A stretch of DNA of 7,547 nt, from NCBI GenBank assembly GCA_036562265.1, contig DATCKS010000026.1:1-7547 (forward strand), read 5' to 3'. This DNA is from DASVDK01 sp036562265 [NCBI: Thermodesulfobacteriota bacterium] (lineage in GTDB: Bacteria > DASVDK01). Of this stretch, positions 65-7,547 are shown piece after piece. The position numbers and the translations under genes were made by a program. Each line of letters starts with the position of its first letter. The stretch's first letter is position 1. The notes under the pieces are model-generated. The model ran no database searches, had not been told where the DNA came from, and saw only the letters and a list, made by a program, of their open reading frames with translations.

Positions 65-78
65 GGTGTTCGTGATGC

Positions 79-100
79 TGCATACAGGTGCATGCAGGTG
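79..100. promoter_or_regulatory. Operator-like repeats overlapping the regulator start
   Basis: TGCAT at 79-83 and ATGCA at 92-96 form a perfect 5-bp inverted repeat around an 8-nt centre. CATACAGGTG (81-90) and CATGCAGGTG (91-100) form a tandem direct repeat with one mismatch. FadR/FCD-type GntR regulators usually bind short palindromes close to their own promoters. The site lies just downstream of the candidate promoter and covers the start codon of the gntR gene, a position suited to autorepression. The assignment is inference. Confidence 0.33.
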
Positions 101-823
101 AATGCGGCCGTGGCCTCCGGACGGTCGTCCACTCGGGACCGCGTCTACGCCCTCATCCGGCAGCGGATCCTGAACGGCGACCTCGCCCCCGGGACGCGGC
201 TCGTCGCGGGGCAGATCGCCGCGTCGGTCAAGGCGAGCCGGACGCCGGTTCGGGAGGCGATCCTGCGCCTCGTGACCGAGGGGCTCGCCGAGGAGACGCC
301 GGCGGGCCACGTGGTCCGGGAGCTGACGGAGGAGCAGATCGCAGAGCTCTACGAGGTGCGGGTCCCGCTCGAGGCGACCGCGGCGCGGCTCGCCGCGATG
401 CAGCTCACGCCGCTCCACCTCGCGCAGATCGAGGCGCTGCACGAGCGGTTCACCGCGGGGGTCCGCAAGCCGCGTCCCGACGCGAAGGCGCTCGCCGTGC
501 TGAACCTCGAGCTGCACCGGGCGATCTGCCAGGCGGCGCGCAACCCCCTCCTCCTCGACTTCATGTCGCGCATCTACGACACGCTCGGGCGCTTCAGGCG
601 GACGACGTTCGAGCATCCGGGCCGCCTCGCCGAGGTCGCCGCGGAGCACGAGGCGCTCGTCGCCGCGCTCCGCGACCGCGACCCCGCCAGGGCCGAGGCG
701 GTCGCCCGGGCGCACATGGAGCACGCGATGGCGGTCCGCCTGGCGATGTCCCGGGAGCGCTACGGCGCCTCGATCGACGGCGCGCCGGCGCCCTCCGGGC
801 GCCGGACGCGGATCGGGAGGTAG
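92..823 (+). CDS. GntR-family transcriptional regulator, FCD (FadR) subfamily
   Basis: This is a 243-residue DNA-binding regulator that probably controls the downstream transport and oxidation genes in response to a carboxylic acid ligand. Residues about 14-76 form the winged helix-turn-helix. It contains the family signature PGTRL (33-37), then a recognition helix region with SRTPVREAILRL (49-60) and GL (64-65). Residues about 80-215 are an all-helical FCD domain. Its likely metal/ligand positions are N138, H142, H186 and H208, with the hallmark pattern N-x3-H...ARNPLL followed by EHEALVAAL. Length is normal for the family. There is an in-frame stop at 38-40 and no ATG, GTG or TTG start between it and 92. 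ATG 92 lacks a well-spaced ribosome site. GTG 98, two codons later, sits 7 nt after AGGTG (86-90) and may be the true start. It heads the operon with 7 nt to the next gene. The ligand cannot be told from sequence. The family assignment is firm. Confidence 0.93.
   Translation: MQVNAAVASGRSSTRDRVYALIRQRILNGDLAPGTRLVAGQIAASVKASRTPVREAILRLVTEGLAEETPAGHVVRELTEEQIAELYEVRVPLEATAARLAAMQLTPLHLAQIEALHERFTAGVRKPRPDAKALAVLNLELHRAICQAARNPLLLDFMSRIYDTLGRFRRTTFEHPGRLAEVAAEHEALVAALRDRDPARAEAVARAHMEHAMAVRLAMSRERYGASIDGAPAPSGRRTRIGR
815..821 (+). promoter_or_regulatory. Ribosome binding site for the dehydrogenase gene
   Basis: GGGAGGT ends 9 nt before ATG 831 and overlaps the last codons and TAG stop (821-823) of the regulator gene. 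This supports both the chosen start and coupled translation of the two genes. Confidence 0.7.
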
Positions 824-830
824 TTTCGCG

Positions 831-1925
831 ATGCGCCGCTACCGGATCGGCGTCCTCGAGGGGGACGGCATCGGACCGGAAGTGGTCCCGCCCGCGGTGG
901 ACGCCGTCGAGGCGGCGCGCGCCGTGGTCGGCGGCCCGGCGATCGACTGGGTGCCGCTCCCGATGGGCCTCACGGCGTACGAGCGGGAGGGCTCGACGCT
1001 GCCGGCCGCGACGGTGGCGGCGCTCGAGACCTGCGACGGCTTCCTCCTCGGCCCGGTGAGCCACCACACCTACGCCGTCGGGCGCCCGGAGATGGCCAAC
1101 CCGAGCGGGACGCTCCGCAAGCGGTTCGACCTCTACGCCAACGTGCGGCCGGCGAGGTCCTTCGCCGGGGTGAAAACGCGGTACACCGGCGTCGACCTCG
1201 TCGTCGTCCGCGAGAACACCGAAGGGTTCTACGCGGACCGGAACGTGCTCGACGGCAACGGCGAGTTCCGGCCCGACGCCGACACGGTGATCTCGGTGCG
1301 GGTCGTCACCCGCAAGGCGTCGCGCCGGATCGCGGAGTACGCCTTCGCGCTCGCGGCCGAGCGGGCGCGCGCCCGCGGCCGGCAGGGGCGCGTCACCGCC
1401 GTGCACAAGCAGAACGTGCTCAAGCTGGGCGACGGGCTCTTCCTCGACTGCTGCCGCGAGGTCGCGTCGCGCTACCCCGAGGTGGCCTTCGACACGGCCC
1501 ACGTCGACGCGTTCGCCATGTTCCTGGTCCAGCGGCCGGAGGCGTACGACGTCATCGTCACGACGAACCTCTTCGGCGACGTCCTGTCCGACGAGGCCGC
1601 GGGGCTCGTGGGCGGCCTCGGCCTCGCGCCGTCGCTGAACGTCGGCGCCGACATCGCGATGGCGCAGGCGGTGCACGGCTCGGCGCCCGACATCGCCGGT
1701 CGTGGGATCGCCAACCCGGTGGCCGAGATCCTGTCGATGCAGATGCTGCTCGCCTGGCTCGGCCAGCGCCACGACGACGACGCGGCCCGGGCCGCCGCCG
1801 CGCGGATCGCCGGTGCCGTCGACCGGGTGATCGCCGAGGGACGGGTGCGCACGCCGGACCTCGGCGGCCGCGACCGGACGGCCGACGTGGCCCGGGCGGT
1901 CGTCGAGGCGGTCCGGGCGTGCTAG
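831..1925 (+). CDS. NAD-dependent isocitrate/isopropylmalate-family dehydrogenase
   Basis: This 364-residue beta-decarboxylating dehydrogenase oxidises a (2R,3S)-type 2-hydroxyacid and decarboxylates it to a 2-oxoacid with NAD. The family includes 3-isopropylmalate, isocitrate, homoisocitrate, D-malate and tartrate enzymes, all of similar length. The N terminus has GDGIGPE (11-17). The substrate Arg set is R96 (in TLRKRF), R106 (in NVRPAR) and R127 (in VVRENTEGFY), with catalytic Y134 and K193 (HKQNVLK). The metal Asp residues are D226, D250 and D254 (TTNLFGDVLSDEAAG). The cofactor loop HGSAPDIAG (282-290) has Asp at 287, where NADP isocitrate dehydrogenases carry Lys-Tyr, so NAD is expected. 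The usual 'FEPVHGSAP' reads AQAVHGSAP here, a subfamily difference. The specificity loop (SHHTYAVGRPEMANPSG, 77-93) matches no textbook member closely enough to name the substrate. Its placement in a tricarboxylate operon suggests an isocitrate-like or malate-like substrate (inference). Confidence 0.93.
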   Translation: MRRYRIGVLEGDGIGPEVVPPAVDAVEAARAVVGGPAIDWVPLPMGLTAYEREGSTLPAATVAALETCDGFLLGPVSHHTYAVGRPEMANPSGTLRKRFDLYANVRPARSFAGVKTRYTGVDLVVVRENTEGFYADRNVLDGNGEFRPDADTVISVRVVTRKASRRIAEYAFALAAERARARGRQGRVTAVHKQNVLKLGDGLFLDCCREVASRYPEVAFDTAHVDAFAMFLVQRPEAYDVIVTTNLFGDVLSDEAAGLVGGLGLAPSLNVGADIAMAQAVHGSAPDIAGRGIANPVAEILSMQMLLAWLGQRHDDDAARAAAARIAGAVDRVIAEGRVRTPDLGGRDRTADVARAVVEAVRAC

Positions 1926-1930
1926 ATACC

Positions 1931-1959
1931 GTGCGCCGAGCGGCAGCGGTGTGGCGCAC
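1931..1959 (+). other. Intercistronic stem-loop
   Basis: GTGCGCC (1931-1937) pairs perfectly with GGCGCAC (1953-1959). One inner G-U pair (1938/1952) extends it to 8 bp around a 13-nt loop. It lies just after the dehydrogenase stop, in the only sizeable spacer between genes (1926-2011). No T-run follows, so it is not a typical intrinsic terminator. An RNA-processing or stability element that sets relative expression of the binding protein is possible, but in such GC-rich DNA chance pairing is also plausible. Confidence 0.35.
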
Positions 1960-1996
1960 CGCCGCCCGGGGCGATCATCGCGGATCGATACTACTC

Positions 1997-2004
1997 AAGG
2001 AGGT
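1997..2004 (+). promoter_or_regulatory. Strong ribosome binding site of the binding-protein gene
   Basis: AAGGAGGT is a near-perfect anti-Shine-Dalgarno match located 7 nt before ATG 2012. It fixes the start of the binding protein against a longer in-frame reading from GTG 1919, and it is the strongest such site in the window. That fits a protein needed in excess over its membrane partner. Confidence 0.85.
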
Positions 2005-2011
2005 GGTCGAC

Positions 2012-3106
2012 ATGTCCCTCACCCGATGGAGAGGATCCCACCGAGTCGTCATCGCCGTCCTGACGCTGAGCCTGCTGCTCGTCGCGCCCGTGGCACAGGC
2101 CGCCGAGTACTACGCGGGCAAGACGATCGAGATCGTGGTCCCGTTCGGCGCCGGCGGCGGCACCGACGTCTGGGCCCGCTTCATCGCCCCCTACCTCGAG
2201 CGGCACGTCCCGGGCAACCCCCGCGTCATCGTCAGGAACATGCCGGGCGGCGAGAGCATCACCGGCGCGAACCACTTCGCCGCGAACGCCCGCCCCGACG
2301 GCCTCACGCTCCTGGCCACGTCGGGCACGACCGCGTTCCACTACCTGCTCGGGCGGCCCCAGGTCCGCTACGACTTCGAGAAGCTCGCGCCGGTCATCGT
2401 CACCGCCACCGGCGGCGTCGTCTACGCCTCGCCCCGTACCGGCGTGAAGCAGCCGGCCGACCTCCTCAAGCCGCAGGCGCCGCTCGTCTACGGCGGCATC
2501 AGCGCGACCGGTCTCGACCTGGTTACGCTGCTCACCTTCGAGCTGCTCAAGCTCGACGTGAAGTCGGTGCTCGGCTTCGAGGGGCGCGGCCCGGCGCGGC
2601 TCGCCTTCGAGCGGGGCGAGACGACGCTCGACTACCAGACGACGACCGCCTACCAGACGCAGGTCGTGCCGCTGATCTCGCAGGGCAAGGTGACGCCGCT
2701 CATGACGTTCGGCATCCTCACCGGGCCTGGCAAGGTCGAGCGCGACCCGACCGTGCCCGACCTGCCGACCGTGCCGGAGGTCTACCAGCAGATCCACAAG
2801 GAGGCCCCGAGCGGGGTGGCCTGGCGCGCGTACCTCGCCTTCATGGCCGCCGGGTTCGCCTATCAGAAGGCGCTCTGGGCGCCCGACGGCACGCCGAAGG
2901 AGGTGATGGCGGCCCTGCACGAAGGGGCGCGGCGGCTCATCGAGAGCGCCGACTTCAAGGAGAAGAGCCAGGACCTCATGGAGGGGTACCCGACCTACTC
3001 CGGTGACGCCGTCGAGGCGGCGGTGCGCGAGGCGCTGTCGCTGCCGCCCGAGGTTCGGGCGTTCGCGCGCGACCTCGTCTCGACGAAGTACGGCGTGAAG
3101 TTCTAG
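2012..3106 (+). CDS. tctC: TTT-system periplasmic solute-binding protein (TctC/Bug family)
   Basis: This 364-residue extracytoplasmic receptor captures a carboxylate and delivers it to the TctA/TctB permease. Residues 1-30 are a Sec signal peptide: basic N region (R5, R7, R11), hydrophobic core at 12-27 and cleavage after A-Q-A (30/31). The mature N terminus has the family signature YYAGKTIEIVVPFGAGGGTD (33-52), followed by MPGGESITGANHFA (77-90) and RPDGLTLL. The C-terminal lobe shows the usual APDGTPKEVMAALHEG (290-305). The middle part (about 160-220, GISATGLDL...DYQTTTAYQTQ) departs from the common Bug pattern, and the protein is longer than the usual 320-330 residues, so it belongs to a divergent branch whose ligand cannot be inferred from Bug structures. 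The start is set by the strong ribosome site at 1997-2004. The permease gene follows after 18 nt. The symbol denotes the family, not proven citrate transport. Confidence 0.92.
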   Translation: MSLTRWRGSHRVVIAVLTLSLLLVAPVAQAAEYYAGKTIEIVVPFGAGGGTDVWARFIAPYLERHVPGNPRVIVRNMPGGESITGANHFAANARPDGLTLLATSGTTAFHYLLGRPQVRYDFEKLAPVIVTATGGVVYASPRTGVKQPADLLKPQAPLVYGGISATGLDLVTLLTFELLKLDVKSVLGFEGRGPARLAFERGETTLDYQTTTAYQTQVVPLISQGKVTPLMTFGILTGPGKVERDPTVPDLPTVPEVYQQIHKEAPSGVAWRAYLAFMAAGFAYQKALWAPDGTPKEVMAALHEGARRLIESADFKEKSQDLMEGYPTYSGDAVEAAVREALSLPPEVRAFARDLVSTKYGVKF

Positions 3107-3124
3107 CGCCGGGGGCCGCCGTCC

Positions 3125-5047
3125 GTGCCGGGAGCCGCGCTCGACGCCCTCGCCGCCTTCGCCGACCCCGCTCTGCTCGGGATGCTCCTCGCCGGCGTGC
3201 TGACCGGCACGGTGGTGGGGGTCATCCCGGGGCTGGGGGGCACGGCGGCGGTCTCCCTTCTCCTGCCGTTCGTCTTCGGACTCGAGGCGACCCACGCCAT
3301 GGCGCTCATGGTGGGCGCCGTGGCGGTGGTCCACACCGCGGACGTCATCTCGGCGGTCCTCCTCGCGGCCCCGGGATCGGCGTCCGCGGCGGTCGTCATG
3401 ATGGACGGGCACGCCCTGGCCCGGCAGGGGCAGGCCGGCCGGGCGCTCGCCGTCTCGTTCCTCGCCTCGATGCTCGGCGGCCTCATCGGGGCGTTCGGGT
3501 TGACCCTCTCGATCCCGATCGCGAGACCGCTGGTGCTCGCGTTCGGATCGCCCGAGATCTTCGTCCTCTGCCTCCTCGGCGTCAGCTTCGCGGTGTCGCT
3601 CTCCGAGGGGAAGATCCTCAAGGGCGCGGCGGCCGGCCTCCTGGGGCTCCTCCTCGGGACGGTCGGCTCGGCGCCGAACGCCGCCGAGTACCGCTTCACC
3701 TTCGGCACGACCACCCTCATGGATGGGCTGCCGCTCATCGCGATCGCGCTCGGCGTCTTCGGCCTCGCGGAGATCGCCGACTTCCTCCGGCGCGGCGCGG
3801 TGGCTTCCGGCGTCGCGGCGATCGGCGGCGGCTGGCTCCAGGGGATTCGCGACATCGTCCGGTACCGCTGGCACGTCGTACGCGGCGCGCTGATCGGCAT
3901 CTGGGCCGGCATCCTCCCCGGCATCGGCGCGACGGCGGGGACCTGGATGGCGTACGGGCAGGTCGTGGCGTCGGCTCGCGACAAGAGCCGCTTCGGCCGG
4001 GGCGACGTGCGCGGGATCATCGCGCCGGAGAGCGCGAACAACGCCGTCGAGGCGGGCGACCTCATCCCGACGCTCCTCTTCGGCGTCCCCGGCGGCGTGC
4101 CGGCCGCCATCATGATGGGCGCCCTGCTGGTCTTCGGCGTCCAGCCGGGGCCCCGCATCATGACGGAGCACCTCGACCTCGTCTACACGATCGTCTGGAG
4201 CTTCGCGATCGCCAACGTGGTCGGGGCCGGGCTGGCGTTCCTCCTGAGCCCGCTTCTCGCCCGGCTCACGTACGTCCCCTTCGTCCGGCTCGCGCCCGCG
4301 GTCCTCCTCGTGATGCTCGTCGGCGCCTACCAGGACAGCCCGAACATCGGCACGCTCGTGACCATGATCCTCCTCGGCGTCGCCGCCTGGCTCATGAAGC
4401 GGGCCGACTACCCGCGGGCGCCGCTCCTCATCGGCTACGTCCTCAGCCTCCCGACGGAGCGGTACTACTGGCTCACCGTCAACCTGCACGGTAGCTCGTG
4501 GGTGACGAGGCCCTGGGTCGTCGTCCTGCTCCTGCTCCTCGTGGCCTCGGTGGTGTGGGGCATCTGGAGCAGCCTCAAGGCGAACCGCGCCCCCGACGCG
4601 GAGGCGGAGGCGCCGAGCGGTCCGGCCTGGCACGTCGCGGTCAGCGCCGGCGCCCTGGTCGTCTTCTCGGCGGCGCTCGTCGCGAGCTTCGGCTACGACG
4701 AGGGGGCGAGGCTCCTGCCCATGCTCGCCACGATCCCGGGCGTCGCCGTGAGCCTCGTGCAGTTCGTGCTCGACGTGCGCCGGCTGCGGCGCGGCCCCGC
4801 GGGTCCGGCCACCGACCGGGCCGTGGTGCAATCGGCGCTCACGGCGTTCGGGTGGATGGCCGCCTTCGTGCTGCTCCTCTGGCTCTTCGGCCCGTACGTC
4901 GCGGCCGGCGTCTTCGTCCCGCTCTTCCTCGTCACGATGGCAAGGATGCGGTGGATCGGCGTGGCGACCTATACGCTGGTCGTGCTCCTCGCGATGTCGG
5001 GGCTGACCTGGCTCTTCGGTCTCACCTGGCCCCATGGCGTGATCTGA
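3125..5047 (+). CDS. tctA: TTT permease: TctA with C-terminal TctB-like domain (fusion)
   Basis: This 640-residue inner-membrane protein translocates the carboxylate presented by the binding protein, driven by an ion gradient in this family. Residues about 1-495 are TctA. They contain the first glycine-rich repeat GTVVGVIPGLGG (28-39), DGHALARQGQAGRAL, the second repeat GIWAGILPGIGATAG, and the conserved PESANNA (301-307) with FGVPGG...GVQPGPRIM after it. Many hydrophobic helices are present. A charged linker (KANRAPDAEAEAPSG) leads to residues about 502-640, which have about four further membrane helices in the arrangement of the small TctB subunit. TctA alone is about 500 residues and no separate tctB is present in the window, so a fusion is the best reading. 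The start is GTG 3125, the only ATG, GTG or TTG codon in frame directly after the upstream stop (3104-3106, same frame). Its ribosome site (GGGGG at 3111-3115) is modest. The symbol is a family label. Confidence 0.92.
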   Translation: MPGAALDALAAFADPALLGMLLAGVLTGTVVGVIPGLGGTAAVSLLLPFVFGLEATHAMALMVGAVAVVHTADVISAVLLAAPGSASAAVVMMDGHALARQGQAGRALAVSFLASMLGGLIGAFGLTLSIPIARPLVLAFGSPEIFVLCLLGVSFAVSLSEGKILKGAAAGLLGLLLGTVGSAPNAAEYRFTFGTTTLMDGLPLIAIALGVFGLAEIADFLRRGAVASGVAAIGGGWLQGIRDIVRYRWHVVRGALIGIWAGILPGIGATAGTWMAYGQVVASARDKSRFGRGDVRGIIAPESANNAVEAGDLIPTLLFGVPGGVPAAIMMGALLVFGVQPGPRIMTEHLDLVYTIVWSFAIANVVGAGLAFLLSPLLARLTYVPFVRLAPAVLLVMLVGAYQDSPNIGTLVTMILLGVAAWLMKRADYPRAPLLIGYVLSLPTERYYWLTVNLHGSSWVTRPWVVVLLLLLVASVVWGIWSSLKANRAPDAEAEAPSGPAWHVAVSAGALVVFSAALVASFGYDEGARLLPMLATIPGVAVSLVQFVLDVRRLRRGPAGPATDRAVVQSALTAFGWMAAFVLLLWLFGPYVAAGVFVPLFLVTMARMRWIGVATYTLVVLLAMSGLTWLFGLTWPHGVI

Positions 5048-5054
5048 TCCTCTG

Positions 5055-5083
5055 ACCCTCGGAGAAGAACCCTCGGAGAAAGA
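5055..5083 (+). repeat. 14-nt tandem repeat carrying a duplicated ribosome binding site
   Basis: ACCCTCGGAGAA occurs at 5055-5066 and again at 5069-5080, a period of 14 nt. The units continue as GA and AGA respectively. Each copy contains GGAG (5061-5064 and 5075-5078). The second copy is 6 nt before the GTG start of tcuA and is the likely working site. The first is 20 nt away and may be a leftover or a standby site. The repeat fills most of the 37-nt gap between the permease and tcuA. Confidence 0.8.
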
Positions 5084-5084
5084 C

Positions 5085-6473
5085 GTGAGCCACGTGTTCG
5101 ATGTCCTTGTCGTCGGCGGGGGCAACGCCGCCCTCTGCGCGGCCATGACCGCACGCCGCGCGGGGGCGAGCGTCCTCCTGCTCGAGGCGGCGCCGGAGGT
5201 CTACCGAGGCGGCAACAGCCGCCACACGCGCGACATCCGCTACGTCCACCCCGCCGCCACCCAGTACGTGACCGGCCCGTACTCGGAGGAGGAGTTCTGG
5301 GACGACCTCCTCAGGGTCACGGGAGGCGAGACCAACGAGGCGCTGGCGCGGCTGACGATCCGGGAGTCGGCCGACTTCGACCGGTGGATGTGGGCCCACG
5401 GCGTCAGGTGGCAGCGCCCGCTCTCCGGCACGCTCCACCTCGCCCGGACGAACCTCTTCTTCCTCGGCGGCGGCAAGGCGATGATGAACGCCTACTACGC
5501 GACCGCGCGCGACCTCGGCGTCGAGATCCGCTACGAGGCGGAGGTGCGGCGCCTCGACGTGCGCGACGGCGTCTTCCACTCGGCGACCGTGGTGCACGCG
5601 GGGCGGGAGGAGGAGGTCCGCGCGCAGGCGGTGGTCGTCGCGTCGGGCGGCTTCGAGGCCAACCGGGAGTGGCTCAGGGAGTACTGGGGCGACGCCGCGG
5701 ACAACTTCGTCATTCGCGGGACCCCCTACAACCAGGGGCGCGTCCTCGAGGCGCTCCTCGAGCACGGCGCGACGCCGGTCGGCAATCCGCGCCGGTTCCA
5801 CGCCGTGGCGGTCGACGCCCGCGCGCCGATGACCGACGGCGGCATCATCACCCGCCTCGACAGCGTCCCCTTCGGCATCGTGGTCAACCGGGAGGCGCGC
5901 CGGTTCTACGACGAGGGGGAGGACTTCTGGCCCAAGCGCTACGCGATCTGGGGCGGGCTCATCGCCGAGCAGCCGGGCCAGATCGCCTACTCCATCATCG
6001 ACTCGAAGTCGTTCGACCTCTTCATGCCGTCGGTGTTCCCGCCGATCGAGCGCGGAAGCCTCGAGGAACTCGCCGTCGAGCTGCACCTCGACCCGGCTGC
6101 CCTCAAGGCGACGGTCGACGCCTTCAACCGCGCCGTCCGGCCGGGGCGCTTCGATCCCGGCGCGCTCGACGACTGCCGGACCGAGGGGATCACGCCGGTC
6201 AAGAGCCACTGGGCGCGCCCGATCGACCGGCCCCCCTTCTGGGCCTACCCCTTGAGGCCGGGGATCACGTTCACGTACCTCGGGGTGGCCGTCGACGACC
6301 ACGCGCGCGTGCTCTTCCGCAGCGGCGAGCCCTCCCCCAACGTCTTCGCCGCGGGGGAGGTCATGGCCGGCAACATCCTCGGCCGCGGCTACCTCGCGGG
6401 GTTCGGGCTCACCATCGGCACGGTATTCGGCAGGATCGCGGGACGGGAGGCCGCACGTCATGCCCGGGCTTGA
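5085..6473 (+). CDS. tcuA: FAD-dependent tricarballylate dehydrogenase-type oxidoreductase TcuA
   Basis: This 462-residue flavoprotein is close in length to characterised TcuA (about 465). In Salmonella TcuA oxidises tricarballylate to cis-aconitate and hands electrons to TcuB. Residues 5-34 are the FAD-binding Rossmann segment: FDVLVVGGGNAAL (G11, G13, A16) ending in acidic E34. RGGNSRHTRDIRY (41-53) is typical of TcuA and related flavoproteins. Further family marks are ASGGFEANREW near 186-196, RGTPYNQGRVL, GIVVNREARRFYDEGEDFW (264-282) in the substrate-capping region, and the C-terminal FAD segment NVFAAGEVMAGNILGRGYLAGFGLTIG. No signal peptide is seen, so it should be cytoplasmic and docked to TcuB. 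GTG 5085 is chosen because GGAG (5075-5078) lies 6 nt before it. The 3' end overlaps tcuB by 14 nt, which implies coupled translation. Family certainty is high, but the true substrate could be a relative of tricarballylate. Confidence 0.92.
   Translation: MSHVFDVLVVGGGNAALCAAMTARRAGASVLLLEAAPEVYRGGNSRHTRDIRYVHPAATQYVTGPYSEEEFWDDLLRVTGGETNEALARLTIRESADFDRWMWAHGVRWQRPLSGTLHLARTNLFFLGGGKAMMNAYYATARDLGVEIRYEAEVRRLDVRDGVFHSATVVHAGREEEVRAQAVVVASGGFEANREWLREYWGDAADNFVIRGTPYNQGRVLEALLEHGATPVGNPRRFHAVAVDARAPMTDGGIITRLDSVPFGIVVNREARRFYDEGEDFWPKRYAIWGGLIAEQPGQIAYSIIDSKSFDLFMPSVFPPIERGSLEELAVELHLDPAALKATVDAFNRAVRPGRFDPGALDDCRTEGITPVKSHWARPIDRPPFWAYPLRPGITFTYLGVAVDDHARVLFRSGEPSPNVFAAGEVMAGNILGRGYLAGFGLTIGTVFGRIAGREAARHARA
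6445..6450 (+). promoter_or_regulatory. Ribosome binding site of tcuB inside tcuA
   Basis: GGGAGG lies 9 nt before ATG 6460, within the last codons of tcuA. It decides the tcuB start and the 14-nt overlap. Confidence 0.7.
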
Positions 6474-7547
6474 GGTGCTGAGAGAGGCCGAGCGGCAGAT
6501 GGTCATCTGCAACGCCTGCCGCTACTGCGAAGGCTACTGCGCGGTCTTCCCCGCGATGGAGCGGCGGCGCGTCTTCACGCCGGCGGACGTGACGTACCTG
6601 GCCAACCTCTGCTTCGACTGCCGGGCCTGTTACTACGCCTGCCAGTACGCGCCGCCGCACGAGTTCGCCATCAACGTGCCGCAGATCTTCTCGCGGCTCA
6701 GGGCCGAGACCTACCGTGACTACACCTGGCCGGGGATCTTCGGTCGGTTCTACCGGCAGAGCGCCCGGTCGGGCCTCGTGGTGAGCCTCGCCGCCGTCGC
6801 GGTGGTTCTCCTCCTGACGCTCGCCTGGCAGGGGCCGGAGGTGCTCTTCTCGATCCACCGGGGCGAAGGGGCCTTCTACCGGGTCGTCCCGTACCTCGCC
6901 ATGGTGCTGCCGGCCCTGGCCATCACCCTGTACGGCATCGGGGCGCTCACCATCGGGACCGTCCGGTTCTGGCGCGACACCCGCGGCAGCCTCCGGCAGA
7001 TGATCTCGCCGGGCGCGTTCTGGAAGGCGGTCGAGGACGCCTTCAGCCTCCGGTACCTCGACGGCGGGGGGCACGGCTGCAACTACCCCGACGAGCGCTT
7101 CTCGCAGTCGCGGCGGTGGTACCACCACCTCGTCTTCTACGGCTTCCTCTCCGCCTTCGCGTCGACGACGACGGCGGCGATCTACGAGCACATCTTCCAC
7201 TGGCAGGCCCCCTACCCGTACTTCAGCCTCCCGGTGGTGCTCGGGACGGTCGGCGGGATCATGATGGTGATCGGCACGACCGGCCTCCTCTGGCTCAAGG
7301 CGAAGGCCGACCGGGCGCCGGCCGAGCAGCGGATGCTCGGGATGGACGTGGCGTTCCTCGTCGTCCTCAACCTGACGAACGTCACGGGGCTCGCGCTCCT
7401 CGCCTTCCGCGAGACCGCGGCGATGGGGACCCTGCTCGCGATTCACCTCGGCATGGTGGCGGCGTTCTTCGTCACCGCACCGTACGGGAAGTTCGCCCAC
7501 GTCTGGTACCGGTACGCCGCGCTCGTCCGCAACGCCATCGAGCGCGA
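6460..7547 (+). CDS. tcuB: TcuB-type iron-sulfur/membrane electron-transfer protein (3' end missing)
   Basis: The reading frame stays open for 362 codons to the window edge. Known TcuB proteins are about 380 residues, so only a short tail is probably missing. The N-terminal 70 residues carry two [4Fe-4S] motifs, C17-x2-C20-x2-C23-x3-C27 and C51-x2-C54-x2-C57-x3-C61. About six membrane segments follow (near 105-123, 142-168, 222-242, 257-279, 296-316 and 322-340), with histidines such as H222, H223, H244 and H247 in or near them that could bind haem. In Salmonella, TcuB takes electrons from reduced TcuA and passes them to the quinone pool, regenerating FAD. The adjoining overlapping tcuA is its expected partner. 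The start is ATG 6460, with GGGAGG upstream. The related fused protein CobZ joins both activities in one chain; here they are separate genes. Confidence 0.92.
   Translation, partial: MPGLEVLREAERQMVICNACRYCEGYCAVFPAMERRRVFTPADVTYLANLCFDCRACYYACQYAPPHEFAINVPQIFSRLRAETYRDYTWPGIFGRFYRQSARSGLVVSLAAVAVVLLLTLAWQGPEVLFSIHRGEGAFYRVVPYLAMVLPALAITLYGIGALTIGTVRFWRDTRGSLRQMISPGAFWKAVEDAFSLRYLDGGGHGCNYPDERFSQSRRWYHHLVFYGFLSAFASTTTAAIYEHIFHWQAPYPYFSLPVVLGTVGGIMMVIGTTGLLWLKAKADRAPAEQRMLGMDVAFLVVLNLTNVTGLALLAFRETAAMGTLLAIHLGMVAAFFVTAPYGKFAHVWYRYAALVRNAIER

What the first reader, a model, noticed from the sequence alone, without database searches (positions are those of the whole stretch)
92..7547. Re-wired tricarballylate-type operon: TcuAB with a TTT importer, GntR/FCD control and an added NAD dehydrogenase
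Seen: gntR, IDH/IPMDH-family gene, tctC, tctA-B, tcuA and tcuB sit head to tail with small gaps or overlaps. Known: the Salmonella locus uses LysR TcuR and MFS TcuC. Inferred: the regulator and carrier have been exchanged for a binding-protein-dependent system, giving high-affinity scavenging. The dehydrogenase would complete a route of desaturation, hydration and oxidative decarboxylation that takes a tricarboxylate to a 2-oxoacid. Only the hydratase is missing from the window and may lie beyond the right edge. The real substrate may not be tricarballylate.
Basis: partly seen in the sequence, partly recalled or inferred. Interest (0 to 1): 0.6.

Follow-up and report, generated by a model that had tools for sequence, protein, structure and literature searches.

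The report
Tricarboxylate uptake and oxidation operon
An operon that probably imports a tricarballylate-like acid and oxidises it step by step; its importer and first enzyme belong to known families, but its dehydrogenase belongs to an unstudied branch that recurs beside similar genes in other bacteria.

Summary
Observation confirmed: gntR/FCD, an isocitrate/isopropylmalate-type dehydrogenase, tctC, tctA with a probable fused tctB, tcuA and tcuB lie head to tail at 92-7547. TcuAB with a tripartite tricarboxylate (TTT) importer recurs and is modular: of the 80 best TcuA loci found, 18 have TctA within 8 kb, 10 the window's TctC/fused-TctAB type, 14 a GntR. The dehydrogenase does not group with known isocitrate dehydrogenases: it falls in an uncharacterised clade (51 of 79 tree rows, 100/97) with its own pocket signature. 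In genome samples, 12 of 36 clade members have TcuA or MmgE/PrpD within 10 kb against 0 of 13 other family members (one-sided Fisher p 0.014); for TcuA alone the contrast is not significant (p 0.097). Candidate hydratases in relatives are MmgE/PrpD (in the three best TcuA matches) and AcnA; PrpF-type isomerases often accompany them. Best reading: TTT import, FAD desaturation, hydration by an enzyme outside the window, NAD-linked oxidative decarboxylation. The substrate is unproven and may not be tricarballylate.

The parts
78..97 (.). imperfect 20-bp palindrome CTGCATACAGGTGCATGCAG overlapping the gntR start; candidate auto-operator
   Evidence: sequence; inference only, conservation not tested
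92..823 (+). GntR/FCD-family regulator (243 aa)
   Evidence: Pfam FCD 108.3 bits, GntR 53.6 bits
831..1925 (+). clade-X beta-decarboxylating dehydrogenase, Iso_dh family, NAD-type motif HGSAPDIAG (364 aa)
   Evidence: Pfam Iso_dh 300 bits; below the curated cut-off of all 16 NCBIfam models hit; trees; signature
1997..2003 (+). AAGGAGG ribosome-binding site before tctC ATG 2012
   Evidence: sequence
2012..3106 (+). TctC-type periplasmic binding protein with signal-peptide-like start (364 aa), divergent
   Evidence: Pfam TctC 28.5 bits, cut-off 27; best solved relative 6hke, 52.5 bits
3125..5047 (+). TctA permease with probable fused TctB-like C-terminal part (640 aa)
   Evidence: Pfam TctA 405 bits; TctB 17.6 bits, sub-threshold
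5085..6473 (+). TcuA, FAD-dependent tricarballylate-type dehydrogenase (462 aa)
   Evidence: NF006130 708 bits, TIGR02485 619 bits, both over cut-off
6460..7547 (+). TcuB, 4Fe-4S/membrane electron-transfer protein, cut by the right edge (362 aa present; the TIGR02484 model is 372 long)
   Evidence: TIGR02484 428 bits over cut-off 247; PRK15033 431 under cut-off 524; two CX2CX2CX3C motifs in the translation

Best explanation
A catabolic operon for a tricarballylate- or aconitate-type tricarboxylate. The FCD regulator senses the acid or a product (inferred). TctC binds the acid in the periplasm and TctA(-B) imports it (from families). TcuA moves two hydrogens onto FAD to give an aconitate-type alkene, and TcuB passes the electrons to the quinone pool (from family knowledge of Salmonella TcuA/TcuB, partly recalled). 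A hydratase outside the window, most likely an MmgE/PrpD-family enzyme or an AcnA, adds water (inferred from relatives). The clade-X dehydrogenase then oxidises and decarboxylates the hydroxy-tricarboxylate with NAD+ to a 2-oxoacid (family, catalytic residues and NAD motif shown; substrate inferred). The module is combinatorial: other loci swap carrier, regulator and hydratase.
For: TcuA/TcuB over equivalog cut-offs. Same parts in plasmid loci: of 16 loci with the window-type TctC examined, tcuA in 11, a PrpF-family tautomerase in 14, this kind of dehydrogenase in 8 (not a blind sample). Clade X: 12 of 36 genome-sampled members have TcuA or MmgE/PrpD within 10 kb against 0 of 13 other Iso_dh rows, one-sided Fisher p 0.014; 7 of 36 have TcuA against 0.16-0.32 expected if a 4.5-Mb genome has one or two. 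Hydratase families in relatives: MmgE/PrpD near tcuAB in L015, L001, L002, the three best TcuA matches; tcuA-tcuB-tctC-tctAB-acnA in L008; clade X beside acnA in L203. L193/L208 carry MmgE/PrpD, clade X, a TcuA-family flavoprotein, TctC, TctAB, two PrpF and two AcnA in one block. Ten of ten clade-X genomes tested hold at least two further Iso_dh matches, and all ten hold aconitase-family genes.
Against: Only 1 of the 80 best TcuA loci has clade X within 8 kb; the close relatives L002 and L015 have MmgE/PrpD but no such dehydrogenase in the stretch held. 23 of 36 sampled clade-X genes have no TcuA, MmgE/PrpD or TTT gene within 10 kb, so the clade has other jobs. Against the 13 control rows, TcuA alone (7/36 v 0/13, p 0.097) is not significant and any of the three (13/36 v 1/13, p 0.050) is borderline. 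The MmgE/PrpD of L001/L002/L015 is only about 22-29% identical to the others seen, including those beside clade X. Three of the seven TcuA neighbours are a divergent type (233-276 bits). Aconitase lies near only 3 of the 36. No ligand or enzyme data.
Confidence: 0.6

Rival explanations
1. TcuAB and TTT simply feed tricarballylate into the TCA cycle as cis-aconitate; the dehydrogenase is an extra NAD-linked isocitrate dehydrogenase and the cell's own aconitase is the hydratase.
For: cis-Aconitate is the known TcuA product (title of Lewis 2006 in the reference list of PMC10468695). All 14 genomes tested hold aconitase-family genes. The window enzyme keeps Tyr134, Lys193 and the Arg/Asp set.
Against: The enzyme lies outside the clade that holds the two solved isocitrate dehydrogenases 6lky and 6ltf; the Ser-x-Asn of the isocitrate loop is replaced by Asn90-x-Ser92, and Arg137 and Gln279 are near-specific to the clade; it is below the cut-off of every isocitrate dehydrogenase model hit.
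Confidence: 0.25
2. Two independent uses of one importer: TcuAB handles tricarballylate, while the dehydrogenase handles another imported hydroxyacid (D-malate, tartrate or lactone-derived type).
For: Clade X also occurs with amidohydrolase, lactonase, Ldh_2 or semialdehyde dehydrogenase genes and without TcuA in the stretch seen (L132, L134, L178, L187); branch A sits beside tartrate/D-malate-type dehydrogenases and PdxA (L130, L158).
Against: Direct adjacency with tcuB or tcuA in several loci (L081, L083, L041, L161).
Confidence: 0.15

Closest known systems
Salmonella tcuRABC tricarballylate operon
   Same: TcuA and TcuB over equivalog cut-offs, adjacent and overlapping
   Different: LysR TcuR and MFS TcuC (recalled; the 2004 paper is not held) replaced by GntR/FCD and TTT; a dehydrogenase added
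Tripartite tricarboxylate transporters (TctCBA; BctCBA, passage)
   Same: TctC, TctA and probable TctB parts
   Different: TctA-TctB probably fused; TctC divergent (28.5 bits, cut-off 27); no two-component sensor pair in the window, unlike most of the plasmid TctC loci opened
NAD-isocitrate, homoisocitrate, isopropylmalate and D-malate/tartrate dehydrogenases (Iso_dh superfamily)
   Same: fold family, catalytic Tyr/Lys/Arg/Asp, NAD motif
   Different: separate clade; own signature N90, F133, D136, R137, Q279
trans-aconitate tarRAB system (PMC11495376, abstract and passages)
   Same: assimilation of an aconitate-type acid; PrpF-superfamily isomerase, a family also found in loci related to the window
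   Different: LysR and MFS, no TcuAB or dehydrogenase in the passages seen; no PrpF gene inside the window

Membership tests
TcuA/TcuB tricarballylate utilisation | TcuA equivalog score | tested here: met
   708 bits, cut-off 369
TcuA/TcuB tricarballylate utilisation | TcuB equivalog score | tested here: met
   TIGR02484 428, cut-off 247; the subfamily model PRK15033 not reached (431 v 524) with the C-terminus cut
TcuA/TcuB tricarballylate utilisation | oxidises tricarballylate to cis-aconitate | not testable with these tools
   needs enzyme assay
Salmonella-type tcuRABC operon | LysR regulator and MFS carrier (recalled) | tested here: not met
   GntR/FCD and TctC/TctA instead; genes beyond the window edges could not be read
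TTT transporter | TctA and TctC domains | tested here: met
   405 and 28.5 bits, over cut-offs
TTT transporter | TctB domain | tested here: inconclusive
   17.6 bits, cut-off 29.1
NAD-dependent isocitrate dehydrogenase | groups with solved isocitrate dehydrogenases 6lky and 6ltf | tested here: not met
   separated by branches of 100/99 and 100/97
NAD-dependent isocitrate dehydrogenase | Ser-x-Asn isocitrate loop before LR | tested here: not met
   NPS in the window; N90 in 49 of 51 clade-X rows and 0 of 28 others
homoisocitrate/isopropylmalate/tartrate dehydrogenase | curated model cut-offs | tested here: not met
   LEU3_arch 335 v 410, AksF2 335 v 540, TTC 250 v 470, leuB 221 v 353
GntR/FCD regulators | GntR wHTH plus FCD domain | tested here: met
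   54 and 108 bits

The most novel reading that the evidence does not exclude
Clade X is an unrecognised enzyme type: together with TcuA and a dedicated hydratase or isomerase (MmgE/PrpD, PrpF or an AcnA paralogue) it runs a parallel, plug-in copy of the aconitase-isocitrate dehydrogenase branch on a substituted or stereoisomeric tricarboxylate that the TCA enzymes cannot use, kept even in a genome of about 1.2 Mb.
Probability: 0.3. Interest if true: 0.65.

Novelty: new variant of a known kind. Interest (0 to 1): 0.45.

Why it matters
It gives a testable home to an uncharacterised branch of the isocitrate/isopropylmalate dehydrogenase superfamily, and shows that tricarballylate-type catabolism is more modular (carrier, regulator, hydratase) than the one enterobacterial model. 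Tricarballylate-like acids occur in nature as reduced aconitate and as side chains of fungal toxins (recalled), so the route could matter for carbon turnover in soil and sea.

Tried and rejected
Rejected: that the dehydrogenase groups with the known isocitrate dehydrogenases (trees and residues). Rejected as proven: that the MmgE/PrpD of the closest TcuA relatives and the MmgE/PrpD beside clade X are the same enzyme (about 22-29% identity, separate branches with long-branch warnings). In the 79-row tree the window enzyme joins the MmgE/PrpD-linked branch A (97/84), but in the 55-row tree its place was open, and at two pocket positions (Tyr134, Ser92) it matches branch B, not A: all eight branch-A rows have Gln and His there. 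This conflict stays open.

Led nowhere: the pattern scans of viral contigs gave no relative of the dehydrogenase or of TcuA; the phylum of L015 gave only 6 of 395 sampled genomes with a strong match to the dehydrogenase. Literature: 'tricarballylate' with 'tripartite tricarboxylate' gave 2 papers; one (PMC4684311) was checked by passages and does not link them, the other (PMC5820359) was seen only in the listing; at least two of tcuA/tcuB/tctC gave 12 papers, none linking them by title and abstract start. A fumonisin-degradation lead (a gene cluster with isomerase, TcuA-like and TcuB-like genes) is recalled only; the 15 of 93 papers listed did not hold fumK.

Dropped rows and corrections: Iso_dh matches with an aligned stretch of 900 bases or less, or a score of 150 or less, were left out of the trees (L110 and L181 among them); L043 was left out of the second tree; L084-L109 were left out of both. 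The first Fisher tests counted 14 controls including L181, which is in no tree; one search repeats them with 13 (p 0.014, 0.050, 0.097 instead of 0.010, 0.039, 0.084). The 36 sampled rows come from 34 genomes, and L165/L167 and L164/L166 are near-twins; with one row per genome p is 0.010, with twins merged 0.013. The controls are mostly isocitrate-dehydrogenase-like genes chosen by lower scores, not a random gene set. The second genome sample used the Pacificitalea dehydrogenase, itself TcuAB-linked, as query. In one search the tctC query was one base off frame; its tctC column was discarded and redone. Plasmid loci were not a blind sample: some were opened because coordinates already suggested co-location. 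Gene labels come from phmmer against a small reference set, so unlabelled neighbours may hide other hydratases; a match position there can be that of one domain only.
Full report
WHAT IS THERE. Six same-strand genes fill the window: gntR/FCD 92-823, an Iso_dh-family dehydrogenase 831-1925, tctC 2012-3106, tctA with a probable TctB-like tail 3125-5047, tcuA 5085-6473 and tcuB from 6460 across the right edge. Gaps of 7, 86, 18, 37 and -14 bases, no terminator-like site by the simple scan and uniform third-position GC (0.963-0.978) fit one operon. A 20-bp imperfect palindrome at 78-97 overlaps the gntR start and may be its operator (inference). No genome is held for the window, so the host and what lies to the right are unknown. 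The best TcuA relatives found in the genome collection are 71-73% identical, in MAGs named Deltaproteobacteria (L001, L002, L003, L015).

HOW COMMON IS THE COMBINATION. Within 8 kb of tcuA a TctA gene lies in 18 of 80, the window's own TctC and fused-TctAB type in 10, GntR in 14, PrpF-family in 12, MmgE/PrpD in 11, TRAP in 6, MFS in 5, aconitase in 1 and the window's kind of dehydrogenase in 1 (L041) (carrier reference proteins checked). So TTT plus TcuAB is not rare, carriers are interchangeable, and the dehydrogenase is the rarer part. In 16 plasmid loci with the window-type TctC (labelled; chosen partly because co-location was already visible) tcuA is present in 11, a PrpF-family '4-oxalomesaconate tautomerase' in 14, and this kind of dehydrogenase in 8 (seven of them placed in the trees; L110 by score only). 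Pacificitalea pDY25-C shows tautomerase-tctAB-tctC divergent from GntR-tcuA-tcuB-dehydrogenase-DUF1932. No locus that I looked at has the window's exact order.

THE DEHYDROGENASE. Of 16 NCBIfam models hit, it reaches the cut-off of none. In maximum-likelihood trees the window protein falls in a separate clade, here called X (27 of 55 rows, 100/99; 51 of 79 rows, 100/97), away from two solved isocitrate dehydrogenases (6lky, named putative NAD-dependent, and 6ltf), from Thermus homoisocitrate dehydrogenase and from E. coli LeuB, DmlA and Icd. Lys193, Arg96, Arg106 and Asp250 are present in 51 of 51 clade-X rows. Clade-marking residues are N90 (49 of 51 against 0 of 28 other rows), F133 (50 of 51 against 0 of 28), D136 (50 of 51 against 0 of 28), R137 (51 of 51 against 2 of 28) and Q279 (49 of 51 against 1 of 28). 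The Ser-x-Asn isocitrate loop is replaced, and the NAD-type motif GSAPDIAG is present (roles of these residues and the cofactor reading come from family knowledge). Arg137, three residues after Tyr134, could contact an extra carboxylate (inference). In the larger tree the window joins branch A (97/84), where 7 of the 8 other rows have MmgE/PrpD within 10 kb; the eighth, L206, begins 0.5 kb from a contig end. But all eight have Gln at position 134 and His at 92, where the window has Tyr and Ser like most of branch B, the branch that holds the TcuAB-linked rows.

IS THE LINK MORE THAN CHANCE. Clade-X genes taken from genome samples without regard to TcuA (contexts; labels; recount): 7 of 36 have a TcuA-family gene within 10 kb, 6 have MmgE/PrpD, 10 have TTT genes, 5 PrpF-family, 3 aconitase, and 12 have TcuA or MmgE/PrpD. 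Of 13 other Iso_dh rows fetched the same way: TcuA 0, MmgE/PrpD 0, TTT 1, aconitase 1. One-sided Fisher p is 0.014 for TcuA or MmgE/PrpD, 0.050 for any of TcuA, MmgE/PrpD, TTT and 0.097 for TcuA alone. If a 4.5-Mb genome has one or two TcuA genes, 0.16-0.32 neighbours would be expected by chance against 7 seen. Three of the seven TcuA-type neighbours are divergent; the two of these that were scanned pass the TcuA model NF006130 but not TIGR02485. The other 23 of 36 clade-X genes have none of the three partners, and some clade members sit with lactonase, amidohydrolase or Ldh_2 genes, so the clade is not tied to this pathway alone.

THE MISSING HYDRATASE. The three best TcuA relatives, L015, L001 and L002, each have an MmgE/PrpD gene within 4 kb of tcuA or tcuB (75-84% identical to each other; positions); the fourth, L003, is too short to tell. 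Its best model is the bifunctional 2-methylcitrate dehydratase/aconitate hydratase, far below cut-off (105 v 575), and its best solved relative is PrpD 1szq. MmgE/PrpD enzymes also include epimerases, isomerases and decarboxylases acting on a shared four-carbon dicarboxylate part (PMC12290011, passages), so hydration is likely but not certain. Other loci have aconitase: tcuA-tcuB-tctC-tctAB-acnA in Desulfacinum (L008), acnA divergent from tcuA in Shinella, and acnA beside clade X in L203. PrpF-family genes may interconvert aconitate isomers, as the PrpF-superfamily TarA does (PMC11495376, abstract and passages).

THE FULLEST LOCUS. I saw no tcuB label there. It also has three other Iso_dh genes and one further aconitase-family gene, so clade X is not its only member of the family. 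This is the strongest hint that desaturation, isomerisation, hydration and oxidative decarboxylation form one pathway.

VERDICT. The operon and its parts are real. What is new here is the placing of the dehydrogenase in a recurrent clade without a characterised member among the references used, and the specific hydratase predictions. The substrate remains inferred; nothing here shows that it is tricarballylate. No paper linking tcuAB with TTT was found in the held library with the searches, judged from listings and, for PMC10468695 and PMC4684311, from passages; most subscription journals are not held.

Noticed in passing
L193 5568-18999 and L208 4514-14941 (G1136:C1, about 197,500-221,000): A genome of about 1.2 Mb (stretch 32% GC) keeps a block with two tandem AcnA, two PrpF, two MmgE/PrpD, clade-X dehydrogenase, TcuA-family flavoprotein and TTT importer.
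   Followed up: partly
L130 3356-11343, L133 308-7812, L158, L159, L160, L207: A second recurrent cluster without a TcuAB label: MmgE/PrpD and a branch-A dehydrogenase, with an FCD regulator and, in most, an AbrB-family gene and a tartrate-type dehydrogenase. All eight branch-A rows have Gln where the family's catalytic Tyr stands.
   Followed up: partly
L081, L082, L110-L112, L114, L117-L119, L121 (plasmids): Genes annotated 'AbrB family transcriptional regulator' (PF05145 in the one scanned) recur near GntR-tcuA or the D-2-hydroxyacid dehydrogenase; the regulator name is doubtful (recalled as a membrane-protein family, not tested).
   Followed up: no
L001 13386-14543, L002 1170-2618, L015 2078-3466: An MmgE/PrpD subfamily near tcuAB in the closest relatives, only about 22-29% identical to other MmgE/PrpD seen.
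   Followed up: partly
L004 1468-9494: Locus with PrpF, a DASS-type carrier (PF00939), tcuA, tcuB, a different Iso_dh gene and a LarA-like gene (PF21113): yet another carrier and dehydrogenase combination.
   Followed up: partly
L114 23250-25959: In Paracoccus liaowanqingii an alpha/beta hydrolase and an MBL-fold hydrolase sit next to the clade-X gene, hinting at an ester or lactone form of the substrate.
   Followed up: no
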